A DNA stretch of 64,000 bases, from contig WSYJ01000036.1 of the NCBI GenBank assembly GCA_020186115.1, positions 682,001 through 746,000 of the forward strand, read 5' to 3'. The DNA comes from Histomonas meleagridis (lineage: Eukaryota > Parabasalia > Tritrichomonadida > Dientamoebidae). Positions 37,736-54,788 of the stretch are shown piece by piece. The translations under genes and the position numbers were made by a program. Under the pieces are notes generated by a model. That model ran no database searches, was not told the DNA's origin, and saw nothing but the letters and a program-made list of their open reading frames with translations. How positions within the stretch are numbered: the stretch's first letter is position 1; the number at the start of each line of letters is the position of its first letter.

Positions 37736-39152
37736 TTACAATAAATTTGGTAACGTTTTCATAATGTCGAATACATTCCTTTGGTAATTCATATGAAAGA
37801 TTATTAATTCATTTAGAAAAAAACATAAATTACAGCCAATATTAAAATTATCATCAGCAATATAAGTTTTCTTGTTTTGATTTGATGAAATTATATCAAT
37901 AAAAAATTCAGAATTCAAATTCATTATCATATAAAAATTTCCAAATATTATTTTGAAATAAGAAATTATTATAATAAATTTCAAATAAAACAAACAAATA
38001 TTTGAAGCATTAATATCAATTCCTTTTTGTTTTAAAACGTATTCAACAAGTTCAATATTTACTGATTCAGCTGAAAACACCAAAATATCATGCGGAATTG
38101 AATGATCTTTAAGAAAATATTCAACTAAAAAAATATTTCCAATAATTGCTGCTTCATTAATAATATCATCATTGATTTTCATTCCTTCTTTAAGTAAAAA
38201 TGAAAATATTTCATAATTATGATATAAAATACATTTAACACCTAATTCTTCCAAATTATTGATTTCTTTTAATTTATTATCATAAAAATATTTAAATATA
38301 TCATTTCGATGATATTTGATTGCTGTTTCATATGCACATTCAAATGATGCATGATTTTGTTCACATAAATGAATAATTTCTTCATTACCACATGCAACTG
38401 CATATTTACCTGTGTTTTCTACATTTGCACCATTCATAAGTAAATATTTGAAACATTTAATAGATCCAAAGAATGCTGAATAAGTAATTAATCCAATATC
38501 ATAAGTATTAATAAAAGAGCATCTTTCATGAAGTGATGATTCAATTGTTTGATTAAAATTAAAATCATTTTGTGATGATATTTCTTGAAGTTTTTCTATT
38601 TCATCATTTCGAATTATTTTTGCAATTTCATTTGGATTATGTCCTTCTCTAATTAATTGCAAATGTAATTCCCAATCATTCTTTGAAAGTTCTTCATAAT
38701 TTGATAAGGCTCTAACAAATTTATCATCCCTTAAATGGATTGTTAATTTATCTTTAGACATATAATGTACAAAATAAGCACTCTTGCTGTTTTTTACAAT
38801 GTTTGGTTCATGAAAATTATGCTCAATCATAACTTCAAGAAGATAAGATGATTCTGATTCATATGTATGTTTGATAAGAAATCGCCCAAATATATCAAAT
38901 ATATTGGATTTGATTTTATGACTTTCTTCAAATGTTCTTATTTCTTTTATAATATTCAAAAATAAATCCACATTATTATTTTTAATTACAAAGGAATAAT
39001 ATAATCATTAAATCATAAGATAATGGATGGATTTCATTAAATTTGTTGATTATTAAACCTAAAGATCTAGAGAAATTTTCTTCGCTCAAACCAAAAATTG
39101 CTTGATTTATTGATAAAAGTGTTTCCCAGTTGCAATGTTTCTTTCGTTTCAT
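37736..39152 (-). pseudogene. Ankyrin-repeat protein (DUF3447-type), frameshifted near its 5' end
   Basis: The continuous frame 37736-38971 (411 codons) holds the family core: NDWELHLQLIREGHNPNEIAKI, IRNDEIEKL, HLCEQNHASFECAYETAIKYH. The true start seems to be ATG at 39152 (MKRKKHCNWETLLSINQAI), but that frame stops near 38990. A one-base shift joins it to the downstream frame (KNNNVDLFLNIIKEI). After the last ankyrin half-repeat (KQKGIDINA) it reads into the same AT-rich spacer type as the 40-43 kb array, including TTTCAAAATAATATTTGG. Broken gene or sequencing indel. Confidence 0.65.
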
Positions 39153-39837
39153 GTGGAAAAATGAGTCATTTCAACTCATTACAAAAAGGTGCCAACCAAT
39201 TTTCTTTCTTATAGATTTTTTTGAAAATTCGAAATTATTTATATTGTTCCAAGTGTATTTCAATTAATAGCATATAAATAGATTTAAACAAATTTAGATT
39301 AAGATATAATGATTTTTTAAAATTTCTCCACTTCATTTGAATTTTGTCACTTTCCTTTAAATTTATCAAAGATATAGCACTTTTTAAAAGCAAAATAATG
39401 ATTATTTTAGGATATAAGGAATAACGAATCAATTCCTTGATATATAATATTCACAAACAATATAAAGAAAAGATTGAAAAGAATTTTACTTGGTACCTAA
39501 TTTTGTATGATGTCTTGAAGTAATTTTTCGTCCAACCATGTTAGTTAATCTTGATGTAGTTATAATGTAGGTACCTAATTTATGTTCGAAATTCCACGAG
39601 CAAAAGCTCTATCCATTATGTTGATTCCCATTCGTTGAATTTTTAATTGTTAAATGATTTTCTAATAGATCAAAAATATTGTTATCTTATATTTTGGGAT
39701 TTATATGTAAATTTACGTCAATTTCAATTGAAAAAACATGTATCTTTGCAATGTGTTGTTAAACATTTTGAATTAAAGTAGGATCTATTTAAATACAAAA
39801 TTTTTATATAAAGACATTTTCATATATATAAAATATA
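39153..39837. other. AT-rich intergenic region
   Basis: Separates the end of the 18-module ankyrin array from the next family member. No feature is supported; the 65-codon minus frame at 39235-39432 is low complexity. Confidence 0.5.
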
Positions 39838-42803
39838 TTATTTTTTACTTGTTTTTCGTTTATATTTTGCTAGTAATTTGACAATTTCTGTGTTTCCTTT
39901 TTTTGTTGCATGCATAAGAGCCGTTTCTTTTAATTTTAATAAATTCCAAAAATTATCTTAAAATTTTAAATATTTAATATGAAAATCATTTAAATCATTT
40001 TAACATCATTAATATTTATATCAATATTATCATTTTTTAATAGTAATTTAATGACTTTAACATGTTCATTTTCAATTGCTTTTATAAGAGCTGTTTTCAA
40101 ATATTTAAAGAAACTCCAAAAATAATTTGGAAATATAAAAAGATTCATATAAATATTATATAAGAAAAAGCATAAATTTTTGGCATTAATATCAATGCTT
40201 TTTTGTTTAAGTAATATTTGTACTATTTTGAAATGTCCATTAATAGATGCCCAAATAAGTGGAGTAAAATATATTGAAAATACTTTCCAAATTTTCTTTT
40301 AAATCACAAAATTGTTAATTGAAATATTAATTAATCCATTGAAACATCTTTTATATTAATATTAATCCTTTTTTGTTCAAGTAGTATCTGAACTATTTCG
40401 AAATAACCTTTTTCTGATGCCAATATAAGTGATGATTTATTTAATTAATTTAAATATGTAACATTTAATAATATCATTAAAATATTTTTTGAGATTCGTT
40501 ATTATTTAATATAATATCTTGTGAATTAATATCAATTCCTTTTTGTTCTAGAAGATTTTTTACTATTTCAATATATCCTTCTTCTGTTGCACATATTAGT
40601 GATGTTTTAATAATTTAATTTAATTTCCATATTATTTTATGTTATATCAAAACTATATTTGAAATATTTTACATTTTAATTAGACATTTTTCATATTAAT
40701 ATCGATTCCTTCTTGTTCAAGAAGTAATTTAACTATTTCTATATGACCTTTTCCAGATGCAAACATAAGTGCTGTTCTAAATAATTTAAATAATTTCCAA
40801 ATATTATTTTGAAATATAAAATAATTAAAATTAATGTTATATAAAATAAAGAAATATTTTTGGTATTAACAGCAATTCCTTTTTGTTTGAGAAGCATTAC
40901 GATTACATCTGTGTGGCCATTACAAGATGCGAGTGTTAATGCTGTTTCAAATATTTTGAGCATTTATTGAATCAAACTTTGAAATCCAAAATTATTCAAA
41001 TAAATATGAAAGGAAAAGAATAAGTATTAACAGTATTAATATCAATTCCTTTTTGTTCAAGAAGTAATTTAACTATTTCTATATGACCTTTTCCAGATGC
41101 AAACATAAGTGCTGTTTCAAATAATTTATATAATTTTCACATATTCTTTTAAAATATTATAATGATCAAAATTAAAACCAATAAAACATATAAATGTCTT
41201 TAGCATTAATATCAATTCCTTCTTGTTCAAGAAGTAATTTAACGATTTCTGTATGACCACTTGAGGATGCTAAAATAAGTGCCGTAAAAAAATTAAATAA
41301 TTTCCAAATATTATTTTGAAATAAAAAATTATTAAAATAAATTTTAAATAAAACAAATAAATACTTTTAGCATTAATATCAATTCCTTTTTGTTCAAGAA
41401 GTGATTTAACTATTTCTATATAACCTTTTCCAGATGCAAACATAAGTGCTGTCCAAAATAATTTATATAATTTCCAAATATTATTTTGAAATAAGAAATT
41501 ATTAAAATAAATTTCAAATAAAACAAATAAATACTTTTAGTATTAATATCAATTCCTTTTTGTTCAAGAAGTAATTTAACGATTTCTGTATAACCATTTT
41601 CAGATGCTCTAATAAGTGCTGTTTTAAATAATTTATATAATTTTCACATATTCTTTTAAAATATTATAATGATCAAAATTAAAACAAATAAAACATATAA
41701 ATGTCTTTAGTATTAATATCAATTCCTTTTTGTTCAAGAAGTAATTTAACTATTTCTGTATGACCTTTTTCAGATGCTTTCACAAGTGCCGTAAAAAAAT
41801 TAAATAATTTCCAAATATTATTTTGAAATAAAAAATTATTAAAATAAATTTTAAATAAAACAAATAAATGTCTTTAGCATTAATATCAATTCCTTTTTGT
41901 TCAAGAAGTAATTTAACTATTTCTGTATGACCTCTTTCAGATGCTTTCACAAGTGCCGTAAAAAAATTAAATAATTTCCAAATGTTATTTTGAATTTCCA
42001 AATTATAAAAATAAATTTTAATTAAAACAAATAAATGTCTTTAGCATTAATATCAATTCCTTTTTGTTCAAGAAGTAATTTAACTATTTCTATATAACCA
42101 TTTCCAGATGCAAACATAAGTGCTGTCCAAAATAATTTATATAATTTTCACATATTCTTTTAAAATATTAAATTATTAAAATAAATAACATATAAAACAA
42201 ATAAATACTTTTAGCATTAATATCAATTCCTTTTTGTTCAAGAAGTAATTTAACTATTTCTGTATGACCTTTTTCAGATGCTTTCACAAGTGCCGTAAAA
42301 AAATTAAATAATTTCCAAATATTATTTTGAAATAAAAAATTATTAAAATAAATTTTAAATAAAACAAATAAATGTCTTTAGCATTAATATCAATTCCTTT
42401 TTGTTCAAGAAGTGATTTAACTATTTCTATATAACCTTTTCCAGATGCAAACATAAGTGCTGTCCAAAATAATTTATATAATTTCCAAATATTATTTTAA
42501 AATATTAAATTATTAAAATAAATAACATATAAAACAAATAAATACTTTTAGCATTAATATCAATTCCTTTTTGTTCAAGAAGTAATTTAACGATTTCTGT
42601 ATAACCATTTTCAGATGCTCTAATAAGTGCTGTTTTAAATAATTATAATAATTTCCAAATATTATTTTGAATTTCCAAATTATTAAAACAAGCATTAAGT
42701 TTAAAAATTAAATATTTTTTGTATTAATATCAATCCCTTTTTGTTTAAGTAGTAATTTAACTAATTCATTTTTACCATTTTCTATTGCAAACATTAATGC
42801 TGT
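39838..42803 (-). repeat. Array of 18 ankyrin modules separated by AT-rich spacers (3' part of gene starting at 44077)
   Basis: Modules of exactly 87 nt (29 codons, T-A-L...NAK), upper ends at 42803, 42633, 42463, 42296, 42126, 41959, 41792, 41622, 41452, 41285, 41115, 40945, 40775, 40605, 40435, 40265, 40094, 39924. The last is terminal, ending LLAKYKRKTSKK and TAA at 39838. No module has an internal stop. Spacers (including the one before the first module) are 83 nt (12 times), 80 nt (5) or 84 nt (1), so nearly all leave remainder 2 and each module is out of frame with the previous one. Spacers share TTTCAAAATAATATTTGG and GGAAATTATTTAAATTATTT just before the next module. Period about 170 bp. 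Splicing with unconventional signals, or a decayed array, are both possible. Confidence 0.85.
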
Positions 42804-42850
42804 TCCAAAAAATTTAAAGAATTTTCAAATAATATTTTTATATAAATCAT

Positions 42851-44077
42851 TTACATAAACATTGAATGAAAGAAATATATAGTTTTCTGATTAATATCAA
42901 AAATATTTTCAGTAATTAAGTAATTAAAAAGTTCTTTATTATTATAAATGGATGAAATATCGTAAATATTTAATGGAAATGAATTTATTTTCAGGAAATA
43001 TTGTAGAATGAATATATTTCCTGTTTCCAATGAAGTAGTGATTAAAAATTTAATGATATTCATTCCATTTTTTATCAAAAATAGAAGAATTTCATAGTTA
43101 TGATATATAATGCAAAACCTTCCTAAGTCTTCCAAATTATTAATTTTTTCACTTTTGTTTTCATAAAGATAAAAAAATATATCATTTTTGTGAAATTTTA
43201 TTGATATTTCATATGAGCCTCTAAATGATGAATGATTTTGTTCACATAAATGAATGATTTCTTCATTTCCACCTGCAATTGCATATTTGCCTATATATTT
43301 TGTTTTAGCACCATTTATAAGTAAATATTTAAAACATTTAACTGATGAAAAAAATGCTGCATAATAAATCAATGAAACTTCTTCATTAATAAAAGAACAT
43401 CTTTCATAAAGTGATGGTTCGATTTTTTGATTAATGTTAAAATCACTTTGCGATGTTATTTCTTGAAGTTTTTCAATTTCATCATTTCGAATTATTTTTG
43501 CAATTTCATTTGGATTATGTCCTTCTTCAATGAATTGTTTATGAAGCTTAAAATCATTTTGTGAAAGTTTTTCATAATTATTTATAATTTCATTTTGAAA
43601 ATTGGATTTTGTTTGACATATTTCTTCTTTTGGAATGCATTGAAGAAAATATAATGAGTTTTTAATTACAGACATTTTTTCTTTAATTAACTTATTTTCA
43701 AGTAATTTATAAAGAATATAATAAGATTCTTGTGTTTCAGTACAAATTAGAAAATATTCAAAAATATTTATAATTTTATTTTTTGTTTCTTTATTTTCTT
43801 CTTTTTTGATTTGAAATTGTCTTAAAAATTCACAAATTATGTTAATATTATAATTTCCTGATATATAATATACATATATCATTTGACATATCAAAAGTTT
43901 AAATGAAAAAGGAAACTGATTATTTTCGAATACTAATATTGATTCAACTGTTTTTGAAATATTATTTTCATTCACTTCAAAAATAAGCTTTTCGATTTGC
44001 TGTAATACTTCTATAGTAACTTCCGTTTTATCAATTCCTTTGGTTTGAACTTTCTCGTGTGAAATATTTCCTCCCAA
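42851..44077 (-). CDS. Ankyrin-repeat protein (DUF3447-type), 5' open frame of modular gene
   Basis: A 408-codon frame starting MGGNISHEKVQTK. The N-terminal ~190 residues form the helical domain shared by this family; then QFIEEGHNPNEIAKI, IRNDEIEKLQEI, LIYYAAFFSSVKCFKYLLING and HLCEQNHSSF. The last in-frame ankyrin text is LFNYLITENIFDINQK (to 42884); the remaining ten codons run into an 80-nt spacer before module 1 at 42803. No frameshift is visible in this part, so the gene looks intact up to the array. The Gly2-Gly-Asn-Ile-Ser start also fits an N-myristoylation site. Confidence 0.8.
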   Translation of the reverse strand: MGGNISHEKVQTKGIDKTEVTIEVLQQIEKLIFEVNENNISKTVESILVFENNQFPFSFKLLICQMIYVYYISGNYNINIICEFLRQFQIKKEENKETKNKIINIFEYFLICTETQESYYILYKLLENKLIKEKMSVIKNSLYFLQCIPKEEICQTKSNFQNEIINNYEKLSQNDFKLHKQFIEEGHNPNEIAKIIRNDEIEKLQEITSQSDFNINQKIEPSLYERCSFINEEVSLIYYAAFFSSVKCFKYLLINGAKTKYIGKYAIAGGNEEIIHLCEQNHSSFRGSYEISIKFHKNDIFFYLYENKSEKINNLEDLGRFCIIYHNYEILLFLIKNGMNIIKFLITTSLETGNIFILQYFLKINSFPLNIYDISSIYNNKELFNYLITENIFDINQKTIYFFHSMFM

Positions 44078-45037
44078 TGTTAAAAATCCTAATAAACGGT
44101 TAGTAGAGAAAATTTGAGTTCATGTGAAATATGCTTCGTAAAACTCAGAAAATTATCTTCAAATCCCTTAACATGTTGAAACTGAAAATGACACAAAAAA
44201 GTTCTTTTGGTAACCAAATTTTCTTTATTTTTTTTTTATAAAGTCAAAAAATAAATTTTATTAAAAAAAGAACATTATCGCATATCGAAGAAGACTTAAT
44301 ATCCTTAACTAACACTAAAGCAGTAGTTCAAAGAAATTAAATTCCTCTTCAATTTTTCTCCTTTTCTGGAAGTATTGTGTTTACCCTTCTCAAGCTCGCT
44401 ATTTTTTTCTTGATAAATTTTTTTTGTAAAGTATTAAAATTTGATAACTCATTCAAATCTTGTGTATATGACCTCGAATAAAATTAAAAAAGTCGTTTTT
44501 TTATTAATAAAAAAATAAATCAGAATTTCAAATGAATAAGAGAGATTCAACTCAAATTTAGATATTGTTTCTAGAAATTGATTTTGAATAAAACTGATAA
44601 GAATATCTAGCATTAATATTAATTGTTCTGGGCCGATAAGCTAATAAATCGAAAACTTATATAAATTCTAAATATGAACCAATTGTCATATCATTAAAAA
44701 ATTCGAATCAATTTTGGGTTCTACAACCTATGAAAAACCATAAGATGAAAGAAATAAAGTACGATATGTTTTTTATGACTAAAAAATATTCTTATATTTA
44801 TCTAGAAAAATAGAATTTATATATATTTCGTTTACTTTACTGGATGCTTGCTTCCTGTTCGTTATAAAAATTTTATTTGTAAATTTAAATAAATTTTTAA
44901 CATATTCCTATCCAGCTTTTAAAAATTTTACAAATCCATTTTACAAATTAACAATCACTCAAATTTAATACTTAGCACACAACAAATAACAAAATTAAGA
45001 ATAAACACTAAATGTACTTTATTTTATAATCTATAGA
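44078..45037. other. AT-rich intergenic region
   Basis: Almost 1 kb without a supported gene. CTAACACTAAAGCAG near 44311 vaguely recalls the trichomonad intron 3' motif ACTAACACACAG but has no matching 5' site nearby. Confidence 0.45.
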
Positions 45038-51389: not shown

Positions 51390-52355
51390 ATGGAAAACAA
51401 TCCCAATAAAACAAATGAATCATCATCAAGAAAATGGATACAGCAACTAGAGTCACTTGAAGAAATTGTTTTTAATTTAACTGAAGAAAATATTTATGAA
51501 TCAGTAGATCCGATAATAAATCTACTTAATGATGATGCATATCCATTTCCTAAATTAGCTTTAAGTCGAATTATATATTCAGCATTTCAATCAAAAATGA
51601 ATGATTATAACATTTATATTAATTTTCTGAAGCAAATAGAAACCAAAGAGAAAGAAAACAATAAAACTGATTATGAAATGCTCAACACGTTTACCAAATT
51701 CCTTCAACATTTAGATACACAAGAATCCTATTTTCTTCTTGATAGAATGATTAAAATAAATTTAATTCCAGCAAATTTTATTGATGATAAAATAACATTT
51801 TATTTCGCTAATTATATTTCAGATAAAAAAATGGAGAATTTAAAAAAGATTTTAGAGAGAGATTGGAAAATTTTATTTTCTACATATTTCATGAGTAATT
51901 ACGAAAATCTTTCTAAAAATGATTGGGAACTTCATAAGCAATTAGTTGAAGAAGGAATTAATCCAAATGAAATTGCGATAATAATTCGAAATGATAATGT
52001 CGAAAAGCTTCGAGAAATAACATCACAAACGAAGTTTATTTTTAATCAAATAATTGTCCCATCACTTTATGAAAAATGTTCATTTATTAACAAACCAAAT
52101 GTTTCATTAATTGATTATGCAGCATTTTTTGGCTCGATTAAATGTTTTAAATATCTGCTGTTAAATGGTTTTCTCTTAAAGCAAACAGCAAAATTTGCTG
52201 TTGCAGGTGGAAATCTAGAAATAATTCATATATGCGAACAAAATAAAGCATCATTTGAAGGCGCATATGAAGCAGCAATTGAGTTCATCGAAATGATATT
52301 TTTTATTATTTATATGAAAATAAAATTGCTGATTTTTCAAGGAAAAAACTTATAA
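51390..52355 (+). CDS. Ankyrin-repeat protein (DUF3447-type), 5' open frame, frameshifted
   Basis: A 321-codon frame starting MENNPNKTNESSS, with the family N-terminal helical domain, then QLVEEGINPNEIAII, IRNDNVEKLREI, LIDYAAFFGSIKCFKYLLLNG and HICEQNKASFEGAYEAAIEF. At about 52285 one T is missing relative to paralogues: the text becomes IEMIFFIIYMK while the shifted frame reads HRNDIFYYLYENKIADFS and stays open to ~52443 (EQEEINPNLKK). Ankyrin modules continue at 52508-54095. Probably a damaged gene or a base-call error. Confidence 0.7.
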   Translation: MENNPNKTNESSSRKWIQQLESLEEIVFNLTEENIYESVDPIINLLNDDAYPFPKLALSRIIYSAFQSKMNDYNIYINFLKQIETKEKENNKTDYEMLNTFTKFLQHLDTQESYFLLDRMIKINLIPANFIDDKITFYFANYISDKKMENLKKILERDWKILFSTYFMSNYENLSKNDWELHKQLVEEGINPNEIAIIIRNDNVEKLREITSQTKFIFNQIIVPSLYEKCSFINKPNVSLIDYAAFFGSIKCFKYLLLNGFLLKQTAKFAVAGGNLEIIHICEQNKASFEGAYEAAIEFIEMIFFIIYMKIKLLIFQGKNL

Positions 52356-52507
52356 ATTTTTTATTGTTTTCAAATATTGAATCAATTAATATGAAACTAC
52401 TGAACTTTTTTAATGAACAAGAAGAAATTAACCCTAATTTGAAAAAGATTTGTTTGTTTTATAAAATAATTATAAAAATAATTTGATGTTTTAAAAAAAT
52501 ATTTTGT

Positions 52508-54095
52508 ACACCACTTATAGAAGCAGTTAAAAATTATCATACAGAAATTGTTAAATTACTTCTTGAGCAAAAAGGAAATGATATTAATGCTTTAAATGTA
52601 TTTTTGTTATGCTTAATCTTTATCATAATAATTAGAAATTTTAATATAATTTTTGGGATTGATTTAAAATATTTCTAACAGCGCTTATTATTGCATCTAA
52701 AGAGGGTTATGCAGAAATAGTTCAATTACTTCTTGAATATAACGGCATTGATGTTAATGCCAAAGATGTTTGTTTATTACTTTACGTAATATTTGTTTTA
52801 ATAATTTCATATTTCAAAATAATATTTGGAAATTATTTAAATTATTTTGTACAGCACTTATGCATGCATCTTTTTATGGCCATGCGGAAACAGTTAAATT
52901 ACTTCTTGAAAAAGAAGGAATTGATGTTAATGCTAAAGGTATTTATTTGTTTTATTTGATATTTATTTTAATAATTTGAAGTATTAAAATAATACTTGAA
53001 AATTATTTTGAAAATTTTGGACAGCACTTATACATGCATCTTTTTATGGCCATGCAGAAGTAGTTAAATTACTTCTTGAACAAAAAGGAATTGAAATTAA
53101 TGCTAAAATTATTAATTTATTTTATTTAATATTTATTTTTATTATTTTATATTTCAAAATAATATTTGGAAATTATTTATATAATTCAAAACAGCACTTA
53201 TAATTGTTACAAAAAATGGTTATACAGAAATAGTTAAATTACTTCTTGAAAAAGACGGAATTGATGTTAATGCTAAAGACATTGATTTGTTTTATTAAAA
53301 ATTTATTTTTATTATTTTATATTTCAAAAATAATATTTGGAAATTATTTATATTTTTCAAAACAGCACTTATGTATGCAGCTAAAAATGTTCATATAGAA
53401 ATAGCTAAATTACTTCTTGAACATGAAGGAATTGATATTAATTCTAAAGAAAATTTTTATTTTAATTATTTAATATCTCAAAATAAGGTTTATTTTAATA
53501 ATATATGGTTTTAAACTAATTTTTTTAAATTATTTAAATTATTTCAAACAGCTCTTATGTTGGCAGTTGAAAAGAATAAAATAGAAATGGTCAAATTTCT
53601 CATAGAATAATATCGAATTTCAAAATAAAATTTGGAAATTATTTAAATTATTTAATGCAGCACTTTCGATAGCGATTACTGGGAATAGAACTGAATTGGT
53701 TAAATTACTTCTTGAACACGAAGGAATTGATGTTAATGCTAGAGGTTTTTATATGTTTTAAATGAAATTTATTTTTTTTCTCATTTTATATTTCAAAATA
53801 ATATTTGGAAATGATTAAAATTATTTGAAACAGGACTTATGAAAGCAGCAAAAAATAATAATACAGAAATCGTTAAATTACTTCTTGAAAAAGAAGAAAT
53901 TGATATTAATGCAAAAGATACTTATTTGTTTTATTTAAAATTTATTTCAATAATTTTTAATTTCGAAATAATATTTGGAAATAATTCAAATCATTTAAAA
54001 CAGCACTTCAAATTGCATCCAAAAATCATTATACTAATATTGTTAAATTAATAAAGGACAAAAAAACTAAAACATCTAAATGTCCAACTGCATAA
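52508..54095 (+). repeat. Array of 10 ankyrin modules separated by AT-rich spacers
   Basis: Modules start at 52508, 52678, 52851, 53021, 53191, 53362, 53548, 53657, 53830 and 54000. Eight are 87 nt and have no stop; the seventh is truncated by a TAA at 53608; the last is terminal (TALQIASKNHYTNIVKLI, then KDKKTKTSKCPTA and TAA at 54093-54095). Most spacers are 83 or 86 nt with TTTCAAAATAATATTTGG before the next module. Same design, Lys-rich end and spacer motif as the opposite-strand array at 39838-42803, but more diverged between modules and partly broken. Confidence 0.85.
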
Positions 54096-54788
54096 ATATT
54101 GGTAATTCACTGTGCAATTAAAAATGTAAAAAATTATAGCAGAAATCACAAAAAATCATTTTCATTTCTAAATGTGTTAAGAAAGAATATATTAACTGGG
54201 CGATCTTTTACATTATAAAAATAAACATTACTAGGAATAAAATTTATTCGTGTTTTATCTTGAAAATGTAAGTATCAATAATTATATTCTGAGTTTTTGA
54301 AAAGATATTAGAATCTTAACATACAAAAACTATAAATAATTGGATGTTGGAATAACACTAATTGATAGTGGTAACATTAACATAAATTTTTCAATTGGGC
54401 AAGTGTCTTATCTATTTTCAAGTAGGTTATTCATTCATAAGAATTACTCCATATCATGTAATGAACAACAATGAATTCGTGAAATTCTATCAATATATCA
54501 ATAGTTAAATGAGAGATAAATTTATATTTTTTTGTAACCATTCAATGTTTTCAAAAAATTACTATTTCAAACAATTTGATACATCTTACATATAGTGAAC
54601 ATTTTAGCAAACCATGAGAAGAAGATGAAAAAATGTGAGGTGACTTAACGTTCAATCATATAAAACATGTCACATGTCATGACATTGTGCCCAAACAAAA
54701 TTTATTGAAAAGTGGTAAAAGGCACCCTGAGCTTTCGCCGAAAAAAGAAATTTTTTTTCAACGTTTCACATCTCTCTTTTATTAGGTT
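54096..54788 (+). other. Intergenic region before the CCZ1-like gene
   Basis: No gene. GGCACCC lies at 54721-54727, and an initiator-like TTTCACATCT about 25-35 bases before the next ATG. Confidence 0.5.

What the first reader, a model, noticed from the sequence alone, without database searches (positions are those of the whole stretch)
39838..44077. Ankyrin gene apparently split by 18 regular, phase-breaking AT-rich spacers
After an intact 408-codon 5' frame, 18 ankyrin modules of exactly 87 nt follow. Every module is open in its own frame and each has ankyrin-consistent residues, yet the spacers (12 of 83, 5 of 80, 1 of 84 nt) put each module out of frame with the last. About 500 module codons without a stop in such AT-rich DNA is very unlikely if untranslated, unless the copies are all recent. 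The array ends in a proper terminal module with a Lys-rich tail and stop. If about 68-71 nt were removed after Asp-x-Tyr, each repeat would become exactly 33 residues, the canonical ankyrin length. This suggests many unconventional mini-introns in a lineage thought to be intron-poor. The spacers lack constant GT/AG ends, so the mechanism is open.
Basis: partly seen in the sequence, partly recalled or inferred. Interest (0 to 1): 0.88.

Follow-up and report, generated by a model that had tools for sequence, protein, structure and literature searches.

The report
Ankyrin genes chopped by AT-rich spacers
In a poultry parasite thought to have almost no introns, a large gene family carries its ankyrin repeats as many separate, well-kept pieces split by near-identical AT-rich spacers, which suggests that the cell removes the spacers in some way not yet known.

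Summary
The window lies in Histomonas meleagridis: contig C120 is 3,384,422 bp, the published largest contig. An exact pattern spanning two neighbouring modules across 60-90 nt occurs 1,725 times (reversed control 0); the spacer-free spacing occurs 0 times. In the window and 20 loci, 280 of 284 near-complete modules are open; with partial matches about 11 of 340 are broken. Framework codons are constrained (ratio about 0.34) and surface codons diversified (that set leans towards intact modules). Near-complete modules stay intact far into arrays: 44 of 44 at places 11-20, 35 of 36 beyond. A clear capping module with its own stop ends 14 of 26 arrays (by eye). These look like working genes, not relics. 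Spacers lack GT..AG, the parabasalid intron motifs and an RNA fold, though canonical introns exist in this genome; 240 of 270 have lengths of 20n or 20n-3. Best reading: spacers are removed from RNA as non-canonical introns, up to about 45 per gene. I could examine no transcript, so removal is inferred. Main rival: a silent module library feeding recombination.

The parts
42851..44077 (-). N-terminal domain (408 codons, DUF3447) with the first, divergent repeat; frame ends inside the first spacer
42714..42806 (-). module 1 (31 codons) of 17; next starts at 42636, 42466, 42299, 42129, 41962, 41795, 41625, 41455, 41288, 41118, 40948, 40778, 40608, 40438, 40268, 40097
42637..42713 (-). typical 77-nt AT-rich spacer (between modules 1 and 2); 16 such spacers lie between modules 1 and 17
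40005..42806 (-). array of 17 ankyrin modules and their spacers
39838..39927 (-). terminal capping module with Lys-rich tail and TAA stop (39838-39840)
51390..52355 (+). second N-domain frame in the window; translation suggests that it is cut short by a frameshift
52505..53919 (+). second spaced array (9 modules found, the one at 53545 with stops); its cap module follows at about 54000-54100

Best explanation
These are working multi-exon genes. Each encodes an N-terminal DUF3447 domain, a run of ankyrin modules (3 to about 45 per array in the loci read) and, in many, a capping module. The AT-rich spacer after each module is removed before translation, most likely from RNA, as a non-canonical intron of roughly 68-71 nt in the main class and 48-54 nt in the short one, giving a continuous solenoid of 33-34-residue repeats with diversified surface residues. 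Arrays grew by tandem duplication of one exon-plus-spacer unit. Shown: the anatomy, the genome-wide recurrence, coding selection on modules, the absence of known intron signals. Inferred: removal itself, its ends (probably after the Ile/Val codon that follows Asp, and one or two codons before the variable codon that precedes Thr-Ala-Leu), and that it happens in RNA. The machinery is unknown: an altered spliceosome or another system.
For: 1,725 exact two-module hits with a spacer, 0 without. 280 of 284 near-complete modules open. Framework codons 254 nonsynonymous changes against 973 expected, 97 synonymous against 126; surface codons 147 against 125 plus 108 codons with several changes. Intact modules deep in arrays. 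Caps at 14 of 26 array ends. Module integrity does not depend on spacer length or phase: 24 of 39 in-phase spacers hold a stop, and spacer lengths off the main steps occur in 21 of 270 against 2 frameshifts in 284 modules, p 1.8e-5. No stop in the codon after Asp nor in the codon before the variable one (0 of 270 each), stops in the codons beyond (15 and 8 of 270). P0004 of another organism has a spacer-free joint of the fitting form.
Against: No RNA or peptide evidence. No consensus splice sites and no fold that would bring the ends together, though canonical introns exist here. Stops in the spacer frame of the next module are rarer than expected (19.5 against 98.8; other frames 22 against 48.8 and 31 against 47.8), which plain introns do not predict; still 77 of 231 frame-shifting spacers have one. 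At up to 8 differences the spacer frame of the preceding module gave a nonsynonymous/synonymous ratio of 0.50. The published annotation, trained on a transcriptome, has at most one intron per gene (PMC8529796, passages). A 20-nt spacer would leave an intron of only about 11-14 nt.
Confidence: 0.5

Rival explanations
1. Silent library. The arrays store module cassettes; recombination copies modules into genes elsewhere and selection acts there. The local gene yields only the N-domain and one repeat and ends in the first spacer.
For: Surface codons change by several bases at once between otherwise near-identical units (108 codons), as exchange between modules would give. Nine of the 11 best relatives of the N-domain end at or soon after the first repeat.
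Against: No recipient with contiguous modules of this kind and the exact flanks used (divergent recipients not tested). Array copies carry their own head, and 14 of 26 a clear cap. Only about 11 of 340 modules are broken, whereas silent archives such as trypanosome VSG genes are mostly broken (recalled).
Confidence: 0.22
2. Decayed tandem array or satellite: a former gene piece amplified without function.
For: Spacers and modules are alike across loci; the window's own head has TTG at its start; the second array in the window has a broken head and a broken module.
Against: Constraint on framework codons, diversified surface codons and intact modules far into arrays.
Confidence: 0.1
3. Recoding: the ribosome shifts frame in, or hops over, each spacer.
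For: Frame-shifting step of 170 nt; deficit of stops in one spacer frame.
Against: 24 of 39 in-phase spacers contain a stop in the frame that would need no shift. A hop needs matching take-off and landing codons (recalled); here the codon after Asp is mostly Ile and the codon before the variable one is Phe in 238 of 270.
Confidence: 0.07
4. Removal at the DNA level in some stage, like programmed DNA elimination.
For: Would explain the lack of RNA signals.
Against: No spacer-free copy with the exact flanks in the assembly. Recombination at the TTATTT shared by both spacer ends would leave 8 nt and the wrong frame (my reading of the sequences). No such process is known to me in parabasalids (recalled).
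Confidence: 0.04

Closest known systems
Spliceosomal introns of Trichomonas vaginalis and T. stableri (PMC12316389, passages seen)
   Same: Short introns in a parabasalid; a few lie in ankyrin genes; lengths 23-25 and 56-196 nt
   Different: Those have GT/AG, an extended 5' motif and a fused ACTAACACACAG-type end, 63 in all in T. vaginalis and, the paper says, no multiple introns per transcript; the spacers here lack the motifs and recur many times per gene
Nonconventional introns of euglenids and diplonemids (PMC6221363, PMC4770533, PMC12621601; start of abstract in the search listings)
   Same: Variable, non-canonical borders and, for euglenids, an unknown mechanism of removal
   Different: Euglenid ones form a stable fold that joins their ends; the spacers here do not
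Numerous non-GT/AG introns of the tunicate Fritillaria and intronic elements of Amoebophrya (PMC13326754, PMC7789003; start of abstract in the search listing)
   Same: Large sets of introns that escape the GT/AG rule, a precedent for an altered spliceosome
   Different: Recalled as spread over many genes; here the spacers that I saw sit at one place of one repeat family
Tandem exon-intron duplication in repeat-protein genes (recalled)
   Same: One exon per repeat with all spacers at the same place
   Different: Known cases use ordinary introns
DUF3447-ankyrin proteins of Tritrichomonas and Trichomonas (P0150-P0152)
   Same: Related N-domain (31-40% identity over 34-47% of the query) followed by ankyrin repeats
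   Different: Their repeats are contiguous, without spacers

Membership tests
Parabasalid spliceosomal introns | GT at the start and AG at the end | tested here: not met
   GT within the first 10 nt and AG within the last 10 nt in 5 of 270 spacers
Parabasalid spliceosomal introns | GTATGT-type 5' motif and CTAAC...CACAG-type fused branch and 3' motif | tested here: not met
   GTATGT in 1, CTAAC in 0, CACAG or CATAG in 1 of 270; such introns do occur elsewhere in this genome, 16 hits against 0 in control
Introns in general | Absent from the mature transcript | not testable with these tools
   no RNA data on hand
Introns in general | Flanking coding sequence is selected while the spacer is not read as protein | tested here: met
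   with the stop deficit in one spacer frame and the 0.50 ratio at the closest pairs as results against
Euglenid nonconventional introns | Stable fold that brings the ends together | tested here: not met
   mean z 0.15 for 60 spacers and -0.15 for 40 with 15-nt flanks; no pairing among the top linked sites
Programmed translational bypassing | Matching take-off and landing codons | tested here: not met
   Ile 213 of 270 after Asp, Phe 238 of 270 before the variable codon; the defining feature itself is recalled
Silent cassette archive | Donors separate from an expressed recipient of the same kind | tested here: inconclusive
   no contiguous recipient with the exact flanks; divergent recipients not tested
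Ankyrin repeat proteins | Modules match the ankyrin profile | tested here: met
   Pfam Ank_2 finds pairs of spaced modules, several with stops between them; residues

The most novel reading that the evidence does not exclude
Histomonas and near relatives run a separate or radically altered intron-removal system, with its own signals ([AG]TT after Asp at the 5' end, ATTT at the 3' end, TTTGG about 20 nt upstream of it, a 20-nt ladder of lengths), that clears thousands of spacers from one ankyrin gene family, up to about 45 per transcript, beside a normal but sparse spliceosomal set.
Probability: 0.3. Interest if true: 0.95.

Novelty: new variant of a known kind. Interest (0 to 1): 0.8.

Why it matters
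Parabasalids count as intron-poor, and the published Histomonas annotation has at most one intron per gene. Thousands of uniform spacers without known splice signals inside selected coding sequence would be a new kind of gene-expression step in a deep eukaryote branch. It would also mean that about a hundred or more genes of a large, diversifying repeat family are at present seen only as truncated heads. One long-read cDNA experiment could decide it.

Tried and rejected
RNA hairpin in the spacer: seen by eye, rejected by shuffles and by site-linkage analysis. GT in the spacer with the ACAG of the next module as splice sites: gives the wrong phase and would delete the diversified codon; rejected by reasoning. 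Frameshift and hop models: see rivals. Candidate introns inside the N-domain (L054-L056): all three stretches are open in one frame, so in-frame insertions. Viral contigs: no relative found. Relatives with a close N-domain and long contiguous repeats: none among the 4 hits, which are more distant. A first canonical-intron pattern gave 0 hits; a second gave 58 against 17 in control, a third 16 against 0. I first noted that the genome was not Histomonas, because a P-type ATPase matched Histomonas at 46%; the contig length corrected this. Length conservation of spacers as proof of constraint: weak, because indels are rare overall. A ten-base periodicity was considered and not supported (lag 10 z -1.0); lag 20 stood out (z 9.2; also lag 13 z 3.4; 33 spacers, lags 4-23). 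The zero stops come from units found in stop-free pieces and so lean towards intact modules; searches are the fair counts. Of the 56 partial matches I judged 7 broken by eye.

Full report
WHAT IS THERE. On the minus strand a 408-codon frame (42851-44077; DUF3447) ends inside the first of 18 AT-rich spacers. Seventeen 31-codon ankyrin modules follow (40005-42806), then a capping module with a Lys-rich tail and TAA (39838-39927). Steps are 170, 167 and once 171 nt.

WHERE. The genome held for the window has 43,276,120 bases in 121 contigs, and its contig C120 is 3,384,422 bp. That is the largest contig of the virulent-strain assembly of Histomonas meleagridis, 43.4 Mb in 187 contigs and 28.7% GC (PMC8529796, passages). 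That paper reports at most one intron per gene; the words ankyrin and splic- do not occur in its main text; its gene models were made with AUGUSTUS trained on a transcriptome.

GENOME-WIDE. A 331-base piece gives 164 matches at more than 35 places besides the window (40 of 1,476 candidates scored). The exact pattern GGAATTGATATTAAT-N60-90-ACAGCACTTAT occurs 1,725 times with 0 for the reversed control; with N9-33, the spacing that a normal ankyrin array would have, it occurs 0 times. This is a lower bound, exact flanks only. The N-domain gives 103 matches from 102 scored of 2,277 candidates. In the window and L029-L050, 225 of 313 spacings below 400 nt are exactly 170. Ordinary contiguous ankyrin arrays of other subfamilies also exist in this genome (L051-L053).

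SELECTION. A DNA-level profile search of the window and L031-L050 gives 340 matches. Of 284 near-complete ones 280 are open, 2 have a stop and 2 a frameshift. Of the 56 partial ones I judge 7 broken; the rest are first repeats, caps or divergent open modules. Between nearest units (138 pairs, up to 30 differences) framework codons show 254 nonsynonymous changes against 973 expected from the spacer mutation pattern, and 97 synonymous against 126, a ratio of about 0.34. The five surface codons show 147 against 125 nonsynonymous, plus 108 codons with several changes. The surface codons (the residue before Thr-Ala-Leu and two pairs after it) are those that vary in ankyrin binding surfaces (recalled). 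The three spacer frames give nonsynonymous/synonymous ratios of 1.07, 1.01 and 0.88 at up to 30 differences; at up to 8 differences the frame of the preceding module gave 0.50 (computed). Near-complete modules are intact in 128 of 129 at places 1-5, 68 of 70 at 6-10, 44 of 44 at 11-20 and 35 of 36 beyond (27 arrays).

ENDS. Fourteen of 26 arrays show, by eye, a clear terminal module in which the usual EQKGIDINAKD gives way to a short, mostly polar tail and a stop in the module's own frame (L031, L032, L033+, L034, L038, L039, L040, L043, L045, L046, L048, L049 and both arrays of the window). In the other 12 I found none or could not tell. Nine loci have a frame of at least 300 codons joined to the first repeat; seven of them have ATG within the first 11 codons.

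SPACERS. Of 270, 240 have lengths 57, 60, 77 or 80 (20n or 20n-3), 9 have 74, and 21 other lengths. Outliers of 20, 37, 40 and 97 nt fit the ladder; 16 and 93 nt do not. TTT triplets recur at lag 20 (z 9.2). G+C is 9%. Among the slowest-changing sites are the TT after Asp, TTT at three places 20 nt apart, and the final ATTT. Stops are absent from the codon after Asp and from the codon before the variable one (0 of 270 each) but present in the next ones (15 and 8 of 270), so at most about Ile and Phe plus one split or added codon are coding. P0004, from another organism, has a spacer-free joint reading N-V-M-F-E-S-A-L, which fits a removal between Ile/Val and the residue before Phe. This is inference.

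NOT A KNOWN INTRON. Canonical parabasalid introns exist in this genome (16 sites against 0 in control). Spacers lack their signals, have no fold and no linked pairing sites. Rfam gave one weak match for window 39500-44200, inside the N-domain on the other strand and below its cut-off.

OTHER SPECIES. Of the 11 best N-domain relatives (38-48% identical; ten are metagenome proteins on contigs of 1.4-2.4 kb, P0010 is a Histomonas paralogue), nine end at or within about 31 residues of the end of the first repeat; P0002 ends before it; P0004 has one more repeat and then ends. P0003 runs on as IYVFYSVLVSIIFYFKKTFGVYSNCFIRHL, which lines up by eye without gaps with the H. meleagridis spacer read in the same frame. 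The break thus seems to be shared with another organism, but I saw no DNA of those contigs, and contig ends could cut some of these proteins.

AGAINST. No RNA or protein evidence. Stops in the spacer frame of the following module are rarer than expected (19.5 against 98.8), more so than in the other frames (22 against 48.8 and 31 against 47.8), yet 77 of 231 frame-shifting spacers contain one. Local nucleotide constraint may explain this; I cannot show it. The window's own gene has no ATG at its start (first in-frame Met at about codon 66), and the second array in the window has a broken head, so single copies may be relics.

LITERATURE. Ten searches. Nothing in the listings shown dealt with multi-intron ankyrin genes or unusual splicing in Histomonas; some listings were capped, and subscription papers and preprints are not in the library. 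Papers seen as passages: PMC8529796, PMC12316389, PMC6679479, PMC10063853 (one passage naming an ankyrin-domain protein). All others named here were seen only in search listings with the start of the abstract.

Noticed in passing
44075-44077 (-): The N-domain frame opens with TTG where paralogues open with ATG; the first in-frame Met is at about codon 66. This copy may use another start or be a relic.
   Followed up: partly
37736-38971 (-): A second DUF3447 frame: its first repeat runs in frame through a spacer-like stretch and I found no further modules after it in the scan.
   Followed up: partly
51390-54110 (+): A third copy: N-domain apparently cut by a frameshift, then a spaced array with one module carrying stops and a cap.
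   Followed up: partly
P0020 (Tritrichomonas foetus TRFO_38791): This protein ends in ...SDKDLYVLFFI, much like a repeat running into a spacer; T. foetus may hold similar spacers.
   Followed up: no
G000:C9:2517-24247, C53:618886-620503, C55:913585-915243, C84:1707642-1717696: The motif ACTAACACATAG recurs about every 826 bases in clusters, perhaps a tandem repeat or gene family with an intron-like end.
   Followed up: no
L042 (-) and L044 (+): Two loci on contig C1 carry near-identical flanking stretches with degenerate modules, apparently a duplicated segment.
   Followed up: no
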